A stretch of DNA of 10,949 nucleotides from Asterionellopsis glacialis (taxonomy: Eukaryota; Bacillariophyta; Plagiogrammaphyceae; Rhaphoneidales; Asterionellopsidaceae), in NCBI GenBank assembly GCA_014885115.2, contig WKLE02001831.1, positions 6,941 through 17,889 of the forward strand, written 5' to 3'. Below are positions 853 through 10,338 of this stretch, piece by piece. The notes beneath the pieces are model-generated. The model did not search any database. It saw only the letters and a list, made by a program, of their open reading frames with translations, and had not been told where the DNA came from. Positions within the stretch are counted from its first letter, which is position 1, and each line of letters begins with the position of its first letter. Both the position numbers and the translations under genes were made by a program.

Positions 853-1404
853 TTATGGTTGTGAAGTGACGACTGTCAGGGGGTGCAAAAATGCCTGAAA
901 CTCAAGTTGGCGTCCTTCTGGATCTACAGCAAAAAATTGATAAATTTGATATCGTTCGTTCAAACGCGGTGGTTTATCGGCAATATCTTTCAGTTGATCA
1001 TACATCTCATCGACTTGTCCTTTGGAGGGGCACACAAAGGTATACATACCAGATAAATCAGGACATTCAATAGTTTGGTGAAAACCTAAAAGCATGTTTC
1101 CATGTGCGAGGATGCTAATATTTGGTTGCTCTAGCCAAGCTGACATTCCAACCCTGTTCTTGTAGAATTGGACAAGTGATTTTCTGTCGGTGGATTTTAA
1201 AAAAACAATACCTCCATACATCTGACCAACTTCTTCTCCGACCGCAGCAGCCGCCATACTTTTAACAGAATTTGTTTCCTTTCGTTGCACAAACGAGGCG
1301 CCAATTGATATCGGGAGTAATGATACTAGTAAGGGTAAAAGGAGGATTTTCATAAAGAAATAAGACGTTGTTTTAGATTGGTGAAGATGTATGCCTGCTC
1401 TCAT
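853..1404 (-). CDS. VOC-superfamily (glyoxalase/dioxygenase fold) protein with N-terminal leader
   Basis: Intronless frame of 183 residues. Residues ~62-176 form a single VOC module: GGIVFLKSTD as first strand, FYKNRVGM (80-87) as the usual FYxxxLGM helix end, ILAHGNMLLGF (98-108), and a closing DPEGRQLEF (161-169) with the Glu that is commonly a metal ligand at 168. The usual first-strand His/Gln ligand is not obvious, so glyoxalase I activity should not be assumed; substrate unknown. The N-terminus is hydrophobic (KILLLPLLVSLLPISIGA, 19-36) followed by SFVQR, similar to the diatom ASAFAP-type plastid-import motif, so ER or plastid entry is likely. Met18 (base 1353) sits directly before the hydrophobic core and is an equally good start, giving 166 residues. 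It is head-to-head with the Rid gene at 1888. The fold is confident, the function is not. Confidence 0.82.
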   Translation of the reverse strand: MRAGIHLHQSKTTSYFFMKILLLPLLVSLLPISIGASFVQRKETNSVKSMAAAAVGEEVGQMYGGIVFLKSTDRKSLVQFYKNRVGMSAWLEQPNISILAHGNMLLGFHQTIECPDLSGMYTFVCPSKGQVDEMYDQLKDIADKPPRLNERYQIYQFFAVDPEGRQLEFQAFLHPLTVVTSQP

Positions 1405-1887: not shown

Positions 1888-2464
1888 ATGTATGCTCGCA
1901 ATTTCCGTAGCCTTGGTAGCAGCTTGCTTACACATGTTCAGAAAACATCTGGTCACCGTTTCTCATCGATTACACGAATTGGCGTTGACGATCCTAGAAT
2001 GAGTAAAGTTGTTGTTCATAATGGAACGGTTTACCTGAGCGGGCTAGTTGATGCGACTCTACCTGATGGTGCGTCATGCGTCACGAGTATTGTTATGATT
2101 CCTTGATGGAAATAATCTTCCATTCTCGTTACGTTTCTGTTTCTTGATTTGAAAAAATGAATGGCTCATGTATTTTCTTGGCTTTTACATCACACTACTG
2201 CATTTTTCAACAGTGGAAGGGCAAACAAAGGTTGTTTTAGCTCAGGTAGATGATTTACTTACAGAGGCAGGTACCTCGAAGTCTAATCTTTTGACAGCAT
2301 CTATTTGGTTGAAAGATATCGATCGTGATTTTAAAGCATTCAATTCAGTTTGGTGCGATTGGGTGGATCCAGAAAACAAACCTGTGCGTGCGACTGTCCA
2401 GTCGCCTATGGCAACTCCGCGTATTCTTGTTGAAATCCAGGTAACGGCTGCTACAGTCGAGTAG
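1888..2464 (+). CDS. Rid/YjgF/UK114-family protein (reactive enamine/imine deaminase), likely mitochondrial
   Basis: Two exons, 1888-2068 and 2214-2464, joined in phase 1 (GATG|TGGAAG), give 143 residues, typical for a Rid domain plus a leader. Known family role: hydrolysis of reactive enamine/imine intermediates such as 2-aminoacrylate released by PLP enzymes; Rid proteins form trimers with active sites between subunits. Visible family blocks: RMSKVVVHNGTVYLSG (37-52), VEGQTKVVLAQVDDLL (61-76), IWLKDIDRDFKAFNSVW (91-107), and PVRATVQ (117-123), where Arg119 aligns with the catalytic Arg of RidA, then ILVEIQVTAA (131-140). Residues 1-30 contain Arg, Lys, His and Ser but no acidic residue (MYARNFRSLGSS...), fitting a mitochondrial presequence. 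It diverges from the VOC gene and converges on the CHD gene 249 bp away. Family confident; substrate and Rid subgroup are not. Confidence 0.92.
2069..2213 (+). other. intron of the Rid gene
   Basis: 145 bp, donor GTGCGT, acceptor TTTTTCAACAG. Removing it restores the conserved ...DVEGQTKVVL block. Reading through instead reaches a stop at 2104-2106. Confidence 0.88.
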
Positions 2465-2713: not shown

Positions 2714-5700
2714 TCAATTAGTTGGTCTTTGTTCCTTGTCGGAATTACCATCAACAACCTCGTCTGCTGTTTTCGAAGTACTCGAAGATACAAGATCGAT
2801 ACATTTCCCCCCAGCCTCGTCAGAGTCAGATAAAACAATCACTTCATTACGCGCTGGTTGCGATTTAGCAAAGTAAGCCTGAATTGCTGCCTGTACACCG
2901 CTGCTTCCTGACGAGGCTTCACCGACGAGATTTGCCATACATGCTAGGCCATTATTATTTGAAGGGCGATTTCGACGCTCGACTACCATTCTAATACTCC
3001 TTTGTGTATCATCAATATCGTTGAGTTCTCGAGCTAACTGATTGACCCGATCCTGTGCAGCAGACCTAGTGAAACTTGCCTTCTCTTGCGATATGGTTTC
3101 TTCGCTACCGTCTTTTTGTTGCAAATGTTGGTGGAATTCTGATTTCTGCTCAACCATTTCATCAAATCCACTGAAACCGTATTCCAATAATCCAGACAGT
3201 AATTCGTGGTCCAACAAAGTTGAATCATCCCCAGAATCATCTTTCGTTTCACTCCACCATGACGGTCGACCCTGCCATATATCTTCTCCTGCTGGCAAAT
3301 TTTTCAAAGCTTTCCCCACAAGCTCTTCGACTTCCACGTCAGTGTATTTCAAAAATATGGACCTGGTTCTTGTTTGCTGTGCTATTTGTGAATAAACCAA
3401 ACGGCATGCTTTTTTATCCAGAATTGCCGAGACATGGAATTCTTCCTTTCCGCCACGTCTTGGAAGATCTTCAATGAAGTCGGCTGCTGTGTGCGCAAGA
3501 ACTTTTCCGGTGCCATCTAAAACATCCAAAGACTCCCCCCAGCGTGCCAGTTCCTTGTTAGTCCATAAAAGGACCTTGTTTCCCAGTCCACTCTTCTTCG
3601 ATCCCCCTCCTCTTTTCGTTTCAATGGATCCCATCCGTCTTCGAAGACATTCCAACACCATGATGCATTTCTTGGCAAGCTTCTCAGGGTCATCGTGGTA
3701 ATCAAGTGCTTTTTCCAACGCGTTTCTTTTGATCTTCTCGTCAAGTTCACAGATGGCTATCTTTTCTCTGACCTTACCAACTTCCGGGGTGTCTTTGCCA
3801 TTACTAGCAACTAGCTTATCTTGGAGCAGTTTCTGTCGTTCTTTCAACTTCGATCGGGCCGTTATGTGCCAAACCTCCGCAGCACTCTTAACTACTAGTC
3901 CCATCCCAAACCATGTTATTGCGTACTGACATCCAGGTCCTTGTTTCTCTGGATCAACATCACCGCAAAAAATTAGGTCTTCCCAATTTGCGGTCCACAC
4001 AGGAAGACCTTGAGAGCAAACAACGCTGAGAAGCAGAGTCTCGATCGCTGTGAGCCTCATGAGTGTTTGGTCATCGATTTCGTTGAACTTCTTAGGAGTG
4101 CCATTGTTTTGTGCACGAAACATTCCACGACTAATCGCCCGATCACCAGATGCATTTTTATCCTTGTCTTTCTTCTTTTCACTACTATCGCTCTTCCTTT
4201 TTTTGCGTGGAGGAGGCTTCTCGCTAATACTCAATGTCGTGAGTGGTTTCTTCTTCTCGGAAGGAAAAAGTTCTTCTGATAAATCATTTTTAGAGGGTAC
4301 TGGCGGAATACCAAGCATAACTCTCAAAACGTTTTTCGTGGGGCGAGATGCAGCCTTTATGTGTCGGCTAACTTCTTCAATGTGCTCTCCGATCTTTTTC
4401 ATTTCGTCACGAAAACTTCGCGCAGGGTCATTGCTACTATCACTAGTTGAGTCCTCTATTAATCCATTTATCGAATCAAACCGCCGCCGCGCTTCTTGGC
4501 TGGCATAAGCGCACACCTTTCGGCACATGTTGGTGGAAGATCCTTTCTTGGCAACGAAAGAAGCTTTCAATAATCCTCGAAGCATTTCGGCAAGAAGAAT
4601 GTTACAGTGATCACCTTGGTTGAGAACGGAGTATTTATGTGTGATTGGTGTTTGGGGTTCTGGTTTCTCGCTAGCACACCCTGCTCCTGCAGGTTTCAAA
4701 GACACTGCCGTCAAAGATGAAACTGAACGGGACAAAACTGTCTTTGCCCGTTTCAGAAGGTCTTTCTTCGTTGGAAGCTCAGCCAGCTCCTCTGCTTTCT
4801 CTTCTTCGTCATTTTCGTCAGCTTGATCTACACATGCACCTTCTTCTGCCTGCTTCAGGAGTGCATCATCGACGATCCAAGTTATCGTGTCGGGGTCTTC
4901 GCCTTCGTTCTGCTGTTGTATTAGCCCGTACGCTTTTATAACTAAATTTTGGTTGAAGCCTTTTAGTTCTTGAATCATGTCGTACTCTGCACTAAAGAAC
5001 GTTGCAGCCCGATTCGCGGTATCCCGCAAGAGTTTTGAACTCAATTCCTTTCTCCGCAATTCTGCTTCCGATATGGGTTCGGCAGTACTTTTTGCAACTT
5101 CATTTTGGATTCCATCATCAAACGGTGCCCCCCATTTGATTGAGCTATCGTTTGTGATGGATCGACAACTGACATCATGTTCGATCCAGCCATGCTTTGC
5201 AATTGCAGCAACAAGTACAGCATCATGCCGTGGAGTCCAAGAAGGATGCGGCAGCGCTGTTCTCTTATCGACATGTAGATGTCTAGCCAATTGATCATGA
5301 AAGTCTTCCCCTTCATTGGCCTTGCATCGTTTTACAAGAGTGTTTGCAGCATGTAGTGCAGAGCAAGCTCCCAAAACCTTTCGTGAAAGATGGATTCTCC
5401 GGTTTGATTTGTTTCTATCAACCATCAATTGAAGAGGTGCATAGAGTTTCAAGAACAACACTAAAGTATCACGACACATTGGATCAAGAGTTGCTCTGGC
5501 AGCCTCTGCCAATTGAGCATGTTGGTGCTCCTTTGCTACGGCAGCAGAGTTGGCAAGCACCTGATCGACTACAGTTGAAAGTTCCGTATGAATTCCAGGA
5601 ACAGCAGCAAGCACTGCTTGCGGAGAACGATACTATAAAGATAGCCAATGGAATGGGATAGCGATTGTATGTGTGAGAAAAATCGATTGCGCACTCGATG

Positions 5701-8700
5701 TCCTGAAGTCTTTCGTGGTAAGCTTACCTGTCTCTTCTCGTAAAAGTAGTGAGTCTGTCCAGCGTATTTGCCCTCCACAACTGTTCGAGATGTCCAACCA
5801 CGAGTCTTGAGTTGTTGCCAAAGGTTTTGGGTAAACGTGGACAACAACCCTTCTTCCGCCTTTGTCCGTAACGGTTTCTTGTTTTCGCCGCTCATAGCAT
5901 GCTGAAACACTTCATCGGAACGAGATTCGTTCGATTTTGAATATTCCTTGGCGTCCTGTACAAGCTGGGATGTCCACGAAGAATTGGCCGCCCATAACTT
6001 CAGAAAGGCTCCTCGTTTCGCTGCAAGTATTTCTAAAGTTTCTTCGTTTTTCTTTCCTTTAGTGGACGCCCCAAGAACTCCCCCCTTACTGGGAGAGGGA
6101 GGAGGCGTTGCCTTACCTTCCGACTCCCGCCTCTTTTCGGCCGCACGTTCGGCTCTTTTCATGGCACCTAAAGCATCTTCCTCGGCAGAGTCGCGAAGAA
6201 CCACAAATATCAGTGACCAACACATACGCTTGATCTATAATTTCAAGAAGATGCAACCATCTGTTAGTTTCGACTTCAAAACATTTCAAAATAGCTGCGG
6301 ATTTCAGATTTTTGTTTTCTCACCTCTTCAATGCTGTACTGTCCTTCTCTCGATATGTCCAATTTCTTGGAGAATACATCCCATTCGAGATTCCCATACC
6401 CATACATTTGAAGTGCCTTGAAAACTTTTTCAACATCTGCCTTTTCCCACTCTGTGGGACCTGTTCCTCCCCATCGGCTCTTCTCTTTCTTCTTCCTGAT
6501 TCTCTTGGTTCGTCCAATTTTACCGCCTTCGTTTTCTGCTGAGGTGTCCGCAACTAGATCCTCGTCGTCGTCATCCCAGTTATCTGATTCAGAATCGGAT
6601 TCGTTCGAGGATGAGGATGACTCGCTATCACTTCCACCACTTCCGAGTGTACCGGTGAGCCTTCTATCGTAGTCTCTCTCAGAATAGTTTGCTTGAGTAC
6701 GTTTGCGCTTTTTGCCGGCTAGGTCGGTGGAATCATCTTCTACCTTCCCTTCTCCAACCATCTTTTTCCAAAACTCGGGGTCATCGATGTCGACATCTTC
6801 GTTACCTGACTTTTTAGTACCTCCGTCTGGAGTTTTTGGAGCTTTGAAACTTGCCTTTGAGAAGGTTCCCCCGGCTGCACTACTCTTGCTACCGGTATTT
6901 TCGTGAACCACGGTTTTACTCCGTCTTTCAAGGATAGAGTCAATGTCCTGCTGGACAAATTCGTTGGATTCTGCATCAGCTGCGCCAGATTTTTCTTCGT
7001 TGAAAATGTCGTAGGCCCCATGTCGTAAAAGTCGTTCCACTTCTTCTTTTGTCATGGCACCCTGAAAGAGCAAATACGAAAGTCGGCAGATGATTTAGCA
7101 AAAATTAAGTTTGATGTGGAGTATTACTCGAAAAGCACTCTTACCTCCCCGTCACCAGAATCTCCTTTTTCAAAACCCTGAAGGACAGCTTGATCCAGAC
7201 CCATTTTCAATGAACTCATATGAAACATCTGCATCTCGTAAGTTTTACGAGATAACAAGCGGTATACCTTGACGTTTTTCGTTTGGCCAATCCTATGGCA
7301 ACGTGCCTGGGCTTGGAGATCGTTCTGAGGATTCCAGTCCGAATCAAAAATGATACATGTATCGGCAGCTGTCAAGTTGATACCTATAATAAAACATTTA
7401 AAAAAATCAGTAATTCTGTTCGATACAAGTAATCTTCCAGATAAAAAGATGAAGACAACACTTACCAACACCGCCGGCTCGAGTTGATAGAAGCATGATG
7501 AAAGGTTGCTCTCTGTCACTTTCCGTATTCTTTGACTGAAATCTGTCGATTGCCATCTGGCGCTTACTGCCAGTGATGGAACCGTCAATTCGTTCGTGCT
7601 TGAACTTTCGAGCATGCAAATAGTCTTCAAGAATGTCAAGCATAATTTTAAACTGACTAAATATCAAGATGCGGTGGCCATTTTCCTTCAGTTTCGGAAG
7701 AAGTTTGTCCAAAAGGACAAGTTTGCCTGATGACTTTACGAGAAAATCACCTTCCAATAATTTGGAGCCAGATTTCTTCTCTTGGTTCCGTATCTCTTCC
7801 TCCACACCATTAAGCAAGAAAGGATGGTTGCAACACTTTCGCAACTGCATCGCGAGATTATTTATGCTTGGTCCGTCCAAAGCCTTCTTTTTGTTTCGGT
7901 GTAAAAATTGAACGTTCTTTTCATAGAGTGCACGATAGTACTGTTTCTGTGGAATCGTAAGTTCTACCTCAATCAGTGTTTCCTCCTTCGGGGGGACACT
8001 CTTTTCAACATCCTCCTTGAGTCGACGGAGGATGTAAGGACGGATTCCTTCGTGGAGCTCGTCGATTCTTTCCTTACTTTTAATATCTCCATATCTTTCC
8101 AGAAAGTCATCCATGTCTTCAAACGCCGCCTCATCTACAATATTCATGAGCGTCCACAGCTCAGTCATGTTATTTTGAATGGGAGTACCAGTTAAAAGCA
8201 GCTTCTGTTTGAAAGTGAATCTGCTGTCACGTAGATTGTTCGCAAGTTTGGAAGCATGATTTTTTAAACGATGGGCTTCGTCCACAACAAGAATGTCCCA
8301 TTCGATCGCAGTAAGTTCCGAGAAATCATCAGTCACAAGCATTTCAGGGGTCGTAATGACAACATCCACCATCCAAAAAGCTTCCGGTTTCTTCTTACTC
8401 CTCTTTCTATTCCACGGCGGGAGACACTTACGGAGATAGCTCTGATTGAATGCAACTCCATTTTTAGGTCTATCTACCTCGTAAGCCATTTCGAACTCCC
8501 GAGTGACCTCCCGATTCTTGGCACTGCCATGGTAGACAATGGTGTTAAGCTTCGTCCAGGATGTGAATTCTCGGTGCCAATGGGGCACAGTCGATAGCGG
8601 AGCAACAATGAGGAAGGGACCGCGTTGTTTAAGCGTCGTGGCAACGTGATTGACGTAAACAGCAGTCTGAATAGTTTTTCCCAATCCCATTTCATCGGCA

Positions 8701-10338
8701 AGAATGGAAGACCGATGGTTCACATGGTTAGCCATAAGCCAAGCAACACCTTCCGCCTGATAATCACGAAGTTGACCACCGTTTGGAAAAGTGATTTCCG
8801 CCAGCGATTTTTGGTACTCCTTTACTTTGGGTTCACGCACCTCCTCTGCAATATTTATCTTGTCACCAAATATTTTATAGAGGCGCCGCTCTTCCAAATC
8901 TCCAGCGGTATCATTTTTCCTCACTTCCGACTTGAGTGGTTTTTTCGACCTTTCAAAAAATGCGTCAACGTACTCTTGATACTCCACCTCGTTCAAAATT
9001 AGATCACGCTCAAATTCGTACGTTGCATCCGAATATGGTGTGTTCGACCACTTAATCAAGAACTGACGTCCAGTTCCCGACTCAAACTTGGGATCTGACT
9101 TATCCATAACGATACCGTAATTTTTTGAATTTTTGGGGACATTATCAGGAAGATGCACCTCGAGGATACGCTCTATCTGGACATACGCAGGGTCAAAGTA
9201 GTCTCCGTCGCAACGTTCATCAGCAGTGAACAGAAGGCCATTTACACTTTTCCGAAAGAATGTGGTCATGTAGGTTTTAGCACCGTCCACCTGATCAATA
9301 AGGTCGTCCTCAGTTTCCCACGAACAGTGTAAAAATGAAAGATCAGACCATTTGACGAGGAAGCGTTCTTCAAACAAATCATCTTCCTCGCCGTCTGGAT
9401 CGTCCTGAAACCATCTAGAACCGTAATCAATTTCGGATGTATTTATGCCTTTACATAGTTCCTTCCACTTCTTTCGGGGTTCTGACCTCGTTGCAAGAAT
9501 TCGCTGAATTTTAATTTCGTCTTCCTCTTCTTCCTCAGACGAATACTCATCATTGGAGTCTTCTGATTCGGACTCAGAAGATACCGGGACTTCGGTTTTC
9601 ATTCGACGACGCTGCGTAGAGTGGCGCACTGCTGGAGATTTTGGAGCCGTGTTTTTCTTTGTGTTCCTTCCGCGCTTTTGAGGTGAGGGTGTCACAGGAG
9701 TTTCCTTAATATCATCGTCGCTGTCATCTTCATCTTCGCCGTTATCACTAGCACTGGAACTATCATCGGATGAATTCTTCCCACCCTTGATTCGCATTGA
9801 TTCCCCCTTAAACAAATCTCTAATTGATTCACCGTTTGGTTCTCTCATGCTCGATTTAAACTTAGTAGTACGGGATGACCTTCTTTGTGATGGTTCTACT
9901 TCTTCTTTCTGTTTCCTGTTATTGTTGCCACGCTTTTCGGTAGTTGAATTGGAACTGTTTCTTGAACGGCGTTTGGCGGGAGCTGTCAGCTTTTCATCGA
10001 CACCATCACTTACGCTCAATATCTCAACATCGTCGTCATCATCACTATCCGTGCGTGTGTCGTCGTTCGATGATTTTTCATTGTCATGGGTAAGAGCAGC
10101 GGCCACTCTCCGCGGGCGTGTCCGAGTACGTTTCGATTCTGACTGCTGTCCTTCCTCTTCGGCATCTGTTTTGCTAGAGGCGCGCTTCTACAATTTTTGG
10201 AAAAAATGAAGGAGAACAGAAAATGGTAAGCTCAGATTCTGGCTTCGCGATTAGGTAGGAGAGAGACACCAATTCGCCTCATATTACAGAATACAAGATG
10301 TCCTTATTTACCTTGTTGTCGATCGCACGGGTGGGCAT
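2714..10338 (-). CDS. CHD-type chromodomain helicase/ATP-dependent chromatin remodeler
   Basis: Six coding exons (minus strand): 10338-10312, 10187-7466, 7383-7145, 7061-6324, 6234-5728, 5632-2714; 7152 nt, ~2383 residues. All junctions are GT-AG and in phase. CHD remodelers use ATP hydrolysis to slide or space nucleosomes in the nucleus. Order: acidic/Ser-rich N-terminus (1-230), chromodomains (~234-326, ~344-426), SNF2 ATPase (~482-960) with DEMGLGKT (507-514), DEAH (645-648) and the motif VI core QARCHRIGQ (942-950), CHD post-helicase segment with DIDDPEFW (1087-1094) as in CHD6-9, SANT-like domain (~1192-1255), MBD-like segment (~1380-1425), KHGW block (1543-1560), basic NLS-like PPPRKKRK (from 1884), and a PIP box plus SIM at the C-terminus. 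It is nearest CHD1/CHD6-9 and much longer than CHD1. The start is the only ATG joining a short exon in frame. Exact subfamily is uncertain. Confidence 0.95.
2816..2893 (-). other. PIP box plus SUMO-interacting motif in the CHD C-terminus
   Basis: Residues 2325-2332 read QAAIQAYF, an exact match to the PCNA-binding consensus Q-x-x-[ILM]-x-x-aromatic-aromatic. Nine residues later VIVLSDSDE (2342-2350) matches a SUMO-interacting motif: four hydrophobic residues followed by Ser/Asp acid. A second SIM-like IDLV follows at 2356-2359. The spacing and position, within the last 60 residues, suit a flexible binding tail. Binding itself is inferred. Confidence 0.6.
5590..5820 (-). other. MBD/TAM-like segment of the CHD protein, split by an intron
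   Basis: Residues ~1380-1425 read [10 protein letters not shown]...([13 protein letters not shown])...[12 protein letters not shown]. The GW, the GxxAGxxxxYF turn and the YRSPxxVLxxV end follow the methyl-CpG-binding-domain pattern (GW, AGxxDVYY, RSxxEVxxYL). Intron 5633-5727 falls after residue 1411, inside the segment. Similarity is by eye; methyl-DNA binding is not shown. Confidence 0.4.
5633..5727 (-). other. CHD coding intron 5
   Basis: 95 bp, donor GTAAGC, acceptor TCTTTATAG, phase 0. Joins ...YEKRQ to [11 protein letters not shown]. Confidence 0.92.
6235..6323 (-). other. CHD coding intron 4
   Basis: 89 bp, donor GTGAGA, acceptor AAATTATAG, phase 0. Joins ...QYSIEE to IKRMCWSLI within the SANT-like domain. 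Confidence 0.92.
6280..6480 (-). other. SANT-like domain of the CHD protein
   Basis: Residues ~1192-1242 are encoded here and ~1243-1255 follow after intron 4. The order [39 protein letters not shown] follows the CHD post-ATPase SANT pattern, with regularly spaced aromatics. A Lys/Arg cluster ([11 protein letters not shown]) lies just before it. In CHD proteins this region contacts linker DNA. Confidence 0.7.
7062..7144 (-). other. CHD coding intron 3
   Basis: 83 bp, donor GTAAGA, acceptor TTGCTCTTTCAG, phase 0. Joins ...GDSGDGE to [12 protein letters not shown]. Confidence 0.93.
7384..7465 (-). other. CHD coding intron 2
   Basis: 82 bp, donor GTAAGT, acceptor TTTTATTATAG. It splits the Gly codon of helicase motif V; splicing restores [15 protein letters not shown]. 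Confidence 0.96.
7466..8750 (-). other. SNF2 ATPase motor of the CHD protein (main part)
   Basis: Covers [12 protein letters not shown] (from 482), Walker A DEMGLGKT (507-514), DEAH (645-648), [10 protein letters not shown] (673-682), ILIFSQF (849-855) and motif V up to the intron; motif VI follows in the next exon. All catalytic motifs are intact, so an active ATPase is expected. Confidence 0.95.
8937..9515 (-). other. tandem chromodomains of the CHD protein
   Basis: First copy around [16 protein letters not shown] (285-300), second around [16 protein letters not shown] (385-400). In CHD1 the first copy carries a WxxW pair used as a methyl-lysine cage. Here the second Trp position is Leu (WSDL), so histone-mark preference may differ. 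Confidence 0.85.
10188..10311 (-). other. CHD coding intron 1
   Basis: 124 bp, donor GTAAAT, acceptor CCAAAAATTGTAG, phase 0. It joins a 27-nt first coding exon (MPTRAIDNK) to [12 protein letters not shown]; the latter frame has no ATG of its own upstream. Confidence 0.8.

What the first reader, a model, noticed from the sequence alone, without database searches (positions are those of the whole stretch)
2816..2893. CHD remodeler ending in a PIP box followed by a SUMO-interacting motif
QAAIQAYF (2325-2332) is a textbook PCNA-binding motif and VIVLSDSDE (2342-2350) a textbook SIM, nine residues apart in a disordered-looking tail. Yeast Srs2 reads SUMO-PCNA through a PIP-like element plus a SIM at its C-terminus. 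I know of no CHD remodeler described with this pair. It suggests recruitment of nucleosome remodeling to SUMO-modified PCNA at replication forks or repair sites.
Basis: partly seen in the sequence, partly recalled or inferred. Interest (0 to 1): 0.78.

Follow-up and report, generated by a model that had tools for sequence, protein, structure and literature searches.

The report
Diatom chromatin remodeler with PCNA-binding tail
A chromatin-remodelling enzyme of diatoms ends in a floppy tail that carries a sequence known elsewhere for docking onto the DNA-replication clamp PCNA, followed by one known for binding the protein tag SUMO; both recur in related proteins across diatoms, so this remodeler probably works on freshly copied or repaired DNA.

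Summary
The minus strand encodes a 2383-aa CHD ATPase in six exons. QAAIQAYF lies at 2325-2332 and VIVLSDSDE at 2342-2350, nine residues apart, at exactly 2816-2893.

It is not chance. Among 38 orthologues with complete tails (window plus 37; those with names are diatoms), 29 have a strict PIP box; shuffled tails predict 0.013. A SIM-like motif is in 28 of 38 (6.2 expected; definition written after seeing the tails). PIP then SIM within 60 residues occurs in 23 of 38 (0 of 76,000 shuffles). Positions outside the search pattern are also conserved. Leptocylindrus and Corethron, outside the other diatoms in the tree, have both; Triparma (one sequence) has no PIP. The tail is predicted disordered.

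I read it as PCNA tethering through a canonical PIP, with SUMO binding as an accessory. Specific reading of SUMO-PCNA, as in Srs2, is possible but unproven: the PIP looks stronger than that of Srs2, linkers vary from 7 to 34, and either motif occurs without the other. PCNA was not found in the held assembly. No CHD with this pair turned up in ten open-licence literature searches.

The parts
2714..10338 (-). CHD-type remodeler gene, 2383 aa, exons 10338-10312, 10187-7466, 7383-7145, 7061-6324, 6234-5728, 5632-2714
   Evidence: Spliced model with GT-AG introns, single open frame; Pfam SNF2, Helicase_C and two Chromo stretches
7286..8762 (-). ATPase: SNF2 domain (residues 485-799) and Helicase_C (831-949), interrupted by the intron at 7384-7465
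   Evidence: Pfam PF00176 E 9.4e-74 and PF00271 E 8.2e-24
9291..9368 (-). best-scoring chromodomain stretch (residues 283-308; two Chromo stretches in all)
   Evidence: Pfam PF00385 E 2.3e-12, 2 stretches
3023..3049 (-). conserved anchor RVNQLAREL (2273-2281), used to define where the tail begins
   Evidence: MAFFT alignment of 44 rows; Triparma has RLNHLVREL
2717..2956 (-). C-terminal tail predicted disordered (residues 2304-2383)
   Evidence: AlphaFold2 pLDDT under 50 at exon residues 893-918 and 922-972
2870..2893 (-). PIP box QAAIQAYF (2325-2332)
   Evidence: 29 of 38 tails carry the strict motif, 0.013 expected; a short low-confidence helix (2326-2332) is the only one predicted in residues 2304-2383
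2816..2842 (-). [12 protein letters not shown] (2342-2350)
   Evidence: SIM-like motif in 28 of 38 tails, 6.2 expected, post-hoc definition; identical in P0002
2774..2803 (-). second SIM-like stretch [10 protein letters not shown] (2355-2364)
   Evidence: Part of a 25-residue block identical between window and P0002; conservation beyond this pair not shown

Best explanation
This is a diatom CHD remodeler whose disordered C-terminal tail works as a tether. The canonical PIP box inserts into the interdomain-connector pocket of PCNA and so brings a nucleosome-sliding ATPase to newly replicated or repaired DNA. The SIM just downstream binds SUMO on proteins gathered there (possibly PCNA itself) and lengthens or times the stay. 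Shown by computation: the motifs, their conservation, the predicted disorder and the ATPase domains. Inferred: PCNA binding, SUMO binding, nucleosome sliding, and a role in resetting nucleosomes behind the fork.
For: Strict PIP in 29 of 38 complete tails against 0.013 expected. Positions that the pattern did not select are also conserved: Ile/Val before Q in 22 of 29, Gly at position 3 in 21, Ala/Ser at position 6 in 27. Leptocylindrus and Corethron, outside the other 36 tail-bearing rows in the tree, have both motifs. Tail predicted disordered with a short helix at 2326-2332. SIM-like motif in 28 of 38. The genome encodes a SUMO exon and a MIZ-type ligase domain. Precedents: the ATRX PIP box is needed for its replication role (PMC13372662, passages); yeast CHD1 was a strong high-copy suppressor of elg1 srs2 synthetic lethality, a genetic tie of a CHD to the SUMO-PCNA pathway (PMC3656737, passages).
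Against: Nine of 38 tails lack the strict PIP and ten lack a SIM by my definition, which was written after the tails had been seen. No PCNA gene was found in the held assembly, and PCNA binding was not modelled. The predicted helix is low in confidence: pLDDT is under 50 at 2326-2329. The core resembles that of CHD6-9, which are known at enhancers and promoters (PMC5512084, passages), so a transcriptional role fits as well. In ATRX the replication role needs the PIP box but not the ATPase, so a PIP box need not imply remodelling at forks.
Confidence: 0.58

Rival explanations
1. Dedicated reader of SUMO-PCNA, as in yeast Srs2: PIP and SIM must both engage one SUMO-modified PCNA, so the remodeler comes only to SUMO-marked forks.
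For: Order, C-terminal position and short spacing match Srs2 (PIP 1148-1161, SIM 1168-1174; PMC6116012, passages). Both motifs occur in 23 of 38 tails, and 0 of 76,000 shuffles give the pair. The window's linker could span up to 38 A at full stretch against the 36 A quoted for Srs2. Srs2 and Elg1 are both recruited to SUMO-PCNA by PIP and SIM (PMC3656737, passages).
Against: A canonical PIP may need no SUMO help (inference). Linkers vary from 7 to 34 residues. Six PIP tails lack a SIM by my definition and five PIP-less tails keep one. PCNA SUMOylation in diatoms is untested here. The same review calls simultaneous binding implausible for the Srs2 linker.
Confidence: 0.25
2. PIP and SIM act separately: the PIP for replication, the SIM for recruitment to SUMOylated chromatin regulators, as CHD3 is linked to SUMOylated KAP1.
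For: SIM-like motifs persist in Attheya, Fistulifera, Mayamaea, Epithemia and P0030, which lack the strict PIP. KAP1 auto-SUMOylation and CHD3 are linked (PMC12528215, passages).
Against: In 12 of 23 tails with both motifs they lie 7-12 residues apart, closer than two unrelated docking sites need to be.
Confidence: 0.12
3. The PIP is a PIP degron that destroys the protein on PCNA in S phase through CRL4-Cdt2.
For: Cdt2 degrons contain PIP boxes (recalled).
Against: The Thr-Asp at positions 5-6 that marks degrons (recalled) is absent: position 6 is A, S, C or F in 29 of 29.
Confidence: 0.02
4. Chance matches in a low-complexity tail, without function.
For: SIM-like matches arise in about one shuffled tail in six (6.2 of 38).
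Against: 29 of 38 against 0.013 for the PIP, and conservation at positions that were not selected.
Confidence: 0.03

Closest known systems
Yeast Srs2 C-terminal tandem receptor (PIP-like + SIM)
   Same: PIP then SIM at the C-terminus, 9 residues apart here and 6 in Srs2 (PMC6116012, passages)
   Different: Srs2 is an anti-recombinase helicase with an atypical PIP lacking one or both aromatics; this is a SNF2-type CHD protein with a canonical PIP
Yeast Elg1
   Same: Recruited to SUMO-PCNA through PIP and SUMO-interacting motifs (PMC3656737, passages)
   Different: Elg1 belongs to an RFC-like complex linked to PCNA unloading (PMC4865505, passages); not a remodeler
Human PARI
   Same: PIP and SIM in one protein (PMC4865505, passages)
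   Different: PARI suppresses recombination by removing Rad51; it is no CHD remodeler (recalled)
ATRX PIP box
   Same: SNF2 remodeler with a PIP box needed during replication (PMC13372662, passages)
   Different: PIP at 1843-1850, not C-terminal; no adjacent SIM in the passages read; the replication role does not need the ATPase; ATRX is not a CHD
ZRANB3
   Same: Translocase with PIP plus a modifier-binding module (PMC6116012, passages)
   Different: Reads K63-linked polyubiquitin through an NZF, also has an APIM, and reverses forks
CHD6-9 / Kismet (group III CHD)
   Same: Tandem chromodomains, SNF2 ATPase, and a post-ATPase module of the same type
   Different: No BRK domain found; a C-terminal extension with a PIP+SIM tail that is found in diatoms, its distal domain also in Triparma; no PIP in group III CHDs in the papers found

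Membership tests
Canonical PIP box | Q1, aliphatic at 4, aromatics at 7 and 8 | tested here: met
   QAAIQAYF; 29 of 38 tails
Canonical PIP box | Binds PCNA | not testable with these tools
   No complex prediction or assay; PCNA not found in the held assembly
SUMO-interacting motif | Short hydrophobic core next to acidic/Ser residues | tested here: met
   VIVLSDSDE; 28 of 38 tails against 6.2 expected, post-hoc definition
SUMO-interacting motif | Binds SUMO | not testable with these tools
   No assay
Srs2/PARI SUMO-PCNA readers | UvrD-type (SF1) helicase fold (recalled as defining) | tested here: not met
   Pfam finds SNF2, Helicase_C and Chromo, no UvrD family
Srs2/PARI SUMO-PCNA readers | PIP followed by SIM at the C-terminus | tested here: met
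   Window, and 23 of 38 tails in all, within 60 residues
Srs2/PARI SUMO-PCNA readers | Preference for SUMO-PCNA over PCNA | not testable with these tools
   No assay
CHD remodelers | Tandem chromodomains plus SNF2 ATPase | tested here: met
   Two Chromo stretches, SNF2, Helicase_C
CHD group III (CHD6-9) | Brahma and Kismet (BRK) domains at the C-terminus (PMC5512084, passages) | tested here: not met
   No BRK in Pfam scans of the window protein or P0002
CHD group III (CHD6-9) | CHD6-9-like post-ATPase module (recalled as typical) | tested here: met
   Profile of this module hits fish P0059 at 3.6e-23 and does not list CHD1-type P0086 at 1e-4; that P0059 is of CHD6-9 type is recalled from its motif
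PIP degron | Thr-Asp at positions 5-6 (recalled) | tested here: not met
   Position 6 is never Asp in 29 of 29

The most novel reading that the evidence does not exclude
The common ancestor of diatoms turned a CHD ATPase into a clamp-tethered, SUMO-gated nucleosome remodeler: its tail reads SUMO-modified PCNA, so nucleosome sliding is switched on behind forks or at gaps by PCNA SUMOylation. That would be a chromatin counterpart of Srs2.
Probability: 0.25. Interest if true: 0.82.

Novelty: new variant of a known kind. Interest (0 to 1): 0.64.

Why it matters
How nucleosome remodelers are brought to newly copied DNA is an open question. Here a CHD-family ATPase carries, in its own polypeptide, a clamp-binding motif that recurs in 29 of 38 diatom-type orthologues, deep lineages included. 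That gives a direct, testable physical link between a CHD remodeler and PCNA, and a possible control by SUMO. The rows without the motif (among them Attheya, Thalassionema, Fistulifera, Mayamaea and Epithemia) make a natural experiment: compare replication-coupled chromatin in diatoms that have or lack it.

Tried and rejected
Chance was rejected for the PIP. A PIP degron was rejected because no Asp occurs at position 6. A splice artefact was rejected because the motifs are inside one 972-codon exon, and the PIP also occurs in transcriptome-derived proteins: of nine such rows among the 38, seven carry it (P0004, P0007, P0009, P0020, P0022, P0040, P0044) and two do not (P0012, P0027) (sources as listed; motifs).

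Searches for PCNA in the held assembly gave nothing with PF02747, PF00705 or a plant PCNA. TIGR00590 gave only a divergent clamp-like protein under its cut-off (L020). This is inconclusive: the assembly may lack the gene, or the first look may miss it. The search for FEN1 as a PIP-bearing control in the same genome gave three XPG-type matches; no PIP was found in the open frames of 120 aa or more of those loci, and which of them, if any, is FEN1 was not settled, so this control failed. The fold search with the C-terminal region gave no match at E 0.001 or better. A third protein search started from Triparma returned only itself, so the bolidophyte outgroup rests on one sequence. Of eight hits to the SUMO-like family profile, only L012 read as SUMO; the others read as ubiquitin or ubiquitin-like.

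PIP-pattern matches outside the tails: among P0045-P0121 the pattern Q..[ILM]..[FY][FY] occurs in P0045, P0047, P0049, P0050, P0066, P0074, P0094 and P0117. In P0074 and P0094 it is internal (QQDLFDFF) and lies in what looks like folded sequence; I did not pursue whether any of these bind PCNA.

Full report
Gene. The minus strand of the window holds one large gene. Five GT-AG introns join six exons (10338-10312, 10187-7466, 7383-7145, 7061-6324, 6234-5728, 5632-2714) into a 2383-aa protein. Pfam finds two chromodomain stretches, a SNF2 domain (485-799) and Helicase_C (831-949). A profile of the module just after the ATPase, built from the diatom rows, matches a fish CHD (P0059, E 3.6e-23) and oomycete CHDs, but the CHD1-type fish protein P0086 is not among its hits at 1e-4. 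The label CHD6-9 for P0059 is mine, recalled from its motif. BRK domains, which mark group III CHDs (PMC5512084, passages), were not found. I therefore call it a CHD remodeler with a group III-like core, not a member of group III.

The motifs. QAAIQAYF (2325-2332) and VIVLSDSDE (2342-2350) lie at window 2893-2870 and 2842-2816, nine residues apart, in the last exon. A second SIM-like stretch, [10 protein letters not shown], follows at 2355-2364. A search of the held genome with the tail found only this locus.

Relatives. One search, using residues 1480-2383, returned 7 proteins. One search, using their alignment, scored 7969 candidates, of which 7772 passed E 0.001 and only the best 120 were listed (P0002-P0121, the first 7 included); the rest were not seen. 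P0002-P0044 (43 rows) and the window were aligned; 38 of these 44 reach past the anchor RVNQLAREL, and 6 do not (P0010, P0029, P0033, P0036, P0037, P0042). The 14 rows P0045-P0058 were left out; none is among the hits to the profile of the distal C-terminal domain at 1e-4. Of the 38 tails, 16 carry an organism name or taxid in the listings (five checked) and all 16 are diatoms (for the others among them from general knowledge); P0016 bears a locus prefix that I recall as Cyclotella cryptica. The remaining 21, the window included, have no name and fall among these in the tree.

Census. A strict PIP (Q..[ILMV]..[FY][FY]) is in 29 of 38 tails; 2000 shuffles of each tail predict 0.013. A SIM-like motif is in 28 of 38 against 6.2. 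That definition was written after I had seen the tails; ELM-style patterns recalled from memory give 27 of 38 for the PIP (0.018 expected), 28 of 38 for a parallel SIM (7.5) and 23 of 38 for an antiparallel SIM (5.2). PIP followed by SIM within 60 residues is in 23 of 38, and in none of 76,000 shuffled tails. The strict pattern occurs 5 times in 81,579 aa of the rest of these proteins and 29 times in 4,075 aa of tail. Of the 63 rows P0059-P0121 (oomycetes, Triparma, fish, unnamed; some partial), none has the pattern in its last 150 residues; one, P0117, has it in its last 400. This is a weak control, since apart from Triparma they lack the diatom-type extension. The tails are related by descent, so 29 of 38 is not 29 independent events; the shuffles test chance, not the number of origins.

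What is conserved. In the 29 PIP tails, position 1 is Q in 29, position 4 Leu/Ile in 29, position 7 Phe in 28 (Tyr only in the window) and position 8 Phe in 29. Positions that the pattern did not select are kept as well: Ile/Val before the Q in 22, Gly at 3 in 21, Ala/Ser at 6 in 27. In eight hand-chosen pairs of related tails, identity is 51 of 64 in the PIP, 56 of 80 in the SIM and 455 of 880 elsewhere (P0008 is in two of the pairs). In two of those pairs (P0011/P0016, P0004/P0015) the stretch I marked as SIM is poorly matched, 3 of 10 and 4 of 10. For the window and P0002 the PIP is 5 of 8, but the block [25 protein letters not shown] is identical, 25 of 25.

Losses. Nine of 38 tails lack the strict PIP: Attheya (QTSLDLFV instead), Thalassionema, P0030, Fistulifera (QTGLLTFL instead), Mayamaea, Epithemia, P0039, P0041, P0043. 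Five of these keep a SIM-like motif. Six PIP tails lack a SIM by my definition: P0020, P0022, P0024, P0025, P0026, P0028. Three of these six end in VEVVVID or carry DGVIELVAV at the end, which may be a displaced SIM. A quick tree of the ATPase core (LG+G4; 13 of 40 inner branches open; Triparma and P0066 flagged as long branches) needs four changes of PIP state, with Triparma counted as lacking it and states coded by hand. Leptocylindrus and Corethron stand, with Triparma, outside a clade of the other 36 tail-bearing rows (support 99), in an order that is not resolved; both have PIP and SIM. Triparma shares the distal C-terminal domain and the anchor but has no PIP. The simplest reading is gain on the diatom stem and a few later losses, with one bolidophyte sequence as the only near outgroup; loss in Triparma is not excluded.

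Structure. AlphaFold2 on exon 6, with 35 of the 38 tail-bearing rows in the alignment (P0007, P0025 and P0043 left out), gives mean pLDDT 76.5 and pTM 0.50. Residues 2304-2329 and 2333-2383 are below 50. The only helix predicted in this tail is 2326-2332, at the PIP, and its first four residues are below 50 too. The helical region before it has no fold match at E 0.001 or better.

Partners. The held genome encodes SUMO (L012 exon, best match E 7.4e-27 to a solved SUMO) and a MIZ-type SUMO ligase domain. No PCNA proper was found, which is inconclusive for an assembly of 1503 contigs.

Mechanism. I favour tethering through PCNA with SUMO binding as an accessory. In Srs2 the PIP is atypical (PMC10127746, passages), and the 36 A between PIP and SIM on SUMO-PCNA is said to be too long for its six-residue linker (PMC6116012, passages). 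Here the PIP is canonical, so PCNA binding need not depend on SUMO (inference). The window's nine-residue linker could just reach 36 A when fully stretched (38 A at 3.8 A per step, 34 A at 3.4); 22 of 23 linkers could at 3.8 and 19 of 23 at 3.4. A specific SUMO-PCNA reader is therefore possible but not shown.

Known relatives by function. ATRX has a PIP box needed during replication, independently of its ATPase (PMC13372662, passages). Srs2 and Elg1 (PMC3656737, passages) and PARI (PMC4865505, passages) use PIP and SIM. ZRANB3 has PIP, APIM and an NZF. CHD proteins have been tied to this pathway before, without a PIP: yeast CHD1 in high copy suppresses elg1 srs2 lethality, and a network analysis joined human CHD1 to PDS5 through PCNA (PMC6586844, passages). 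Ten searches of an open-licence library listed no paper that I could recognise as describing a CHD protein with a PIP box or with this pair. One search found 123 papers and listed 20. Of the two papers that held 'PIP box', 'chromodomain helicase' and 'PCNA' together, the PIP box is that of RTEL1 in one (PMC9403131, passages) and of Eco1/ESCO2 in the other (PMC8700348, passages). Most listed papers were seen as listings only, and subscription papers were not searched.

Noticed in passing
L020:793-2319 (+), G000:C615: A 509-aa open frame with a divergent PCNA-like clamp domain in its C-terminal half (TIGR00590 26 bits, under cut-off; PDB entry 3k4x, PCNA, at 2.5e-7), a Cys-rich stretch before it and SIM-like stretches such as EIDLTADDD.
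   Followed up: partly
window 3050-5632 (residues 1412-2272): A large helical C-terminal region, predicted with high confidence in parts, shared by the diatom rows and in its distal part by Triparma, with no Pfam family and no fold match in the PDB search.
   Followed up: partly
P0005, P0007, P0017, P0018, P0022, P0025, P0026 C-termini: These tails end in or near a further hydrophobic-acidic element (such as GEIEVVNVE, DGVIELVAV, VEVVVID) that may be an extra or displaced SIM.
   Followed up: no
P0014, P0017, P0021, P0032 and other tails: Many tails end in paired basic stretches (KRK or similar, then EKK with basic residues after it) that look like a bipartite nuclear localisation signal; the window and P0002 show none at the end.
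   Followed up: no
P0074 residue 1735, P0094 residue 1778: Two bromodomain-bearing CHD relatives from unnamed sources hold an internal QQDLFDFF that fits the PIP pattern.
   Followed up: no
window 2168-2464 (+): Part of a RidA/YjgF-type gene (PF01042, E 1.5e-16) on the opposite strand just downstream of the remodeler gene.
   Followed up: partly
window 853-1404 (-): 183-aa open frame with no Pfam match.
   Followed up: partly
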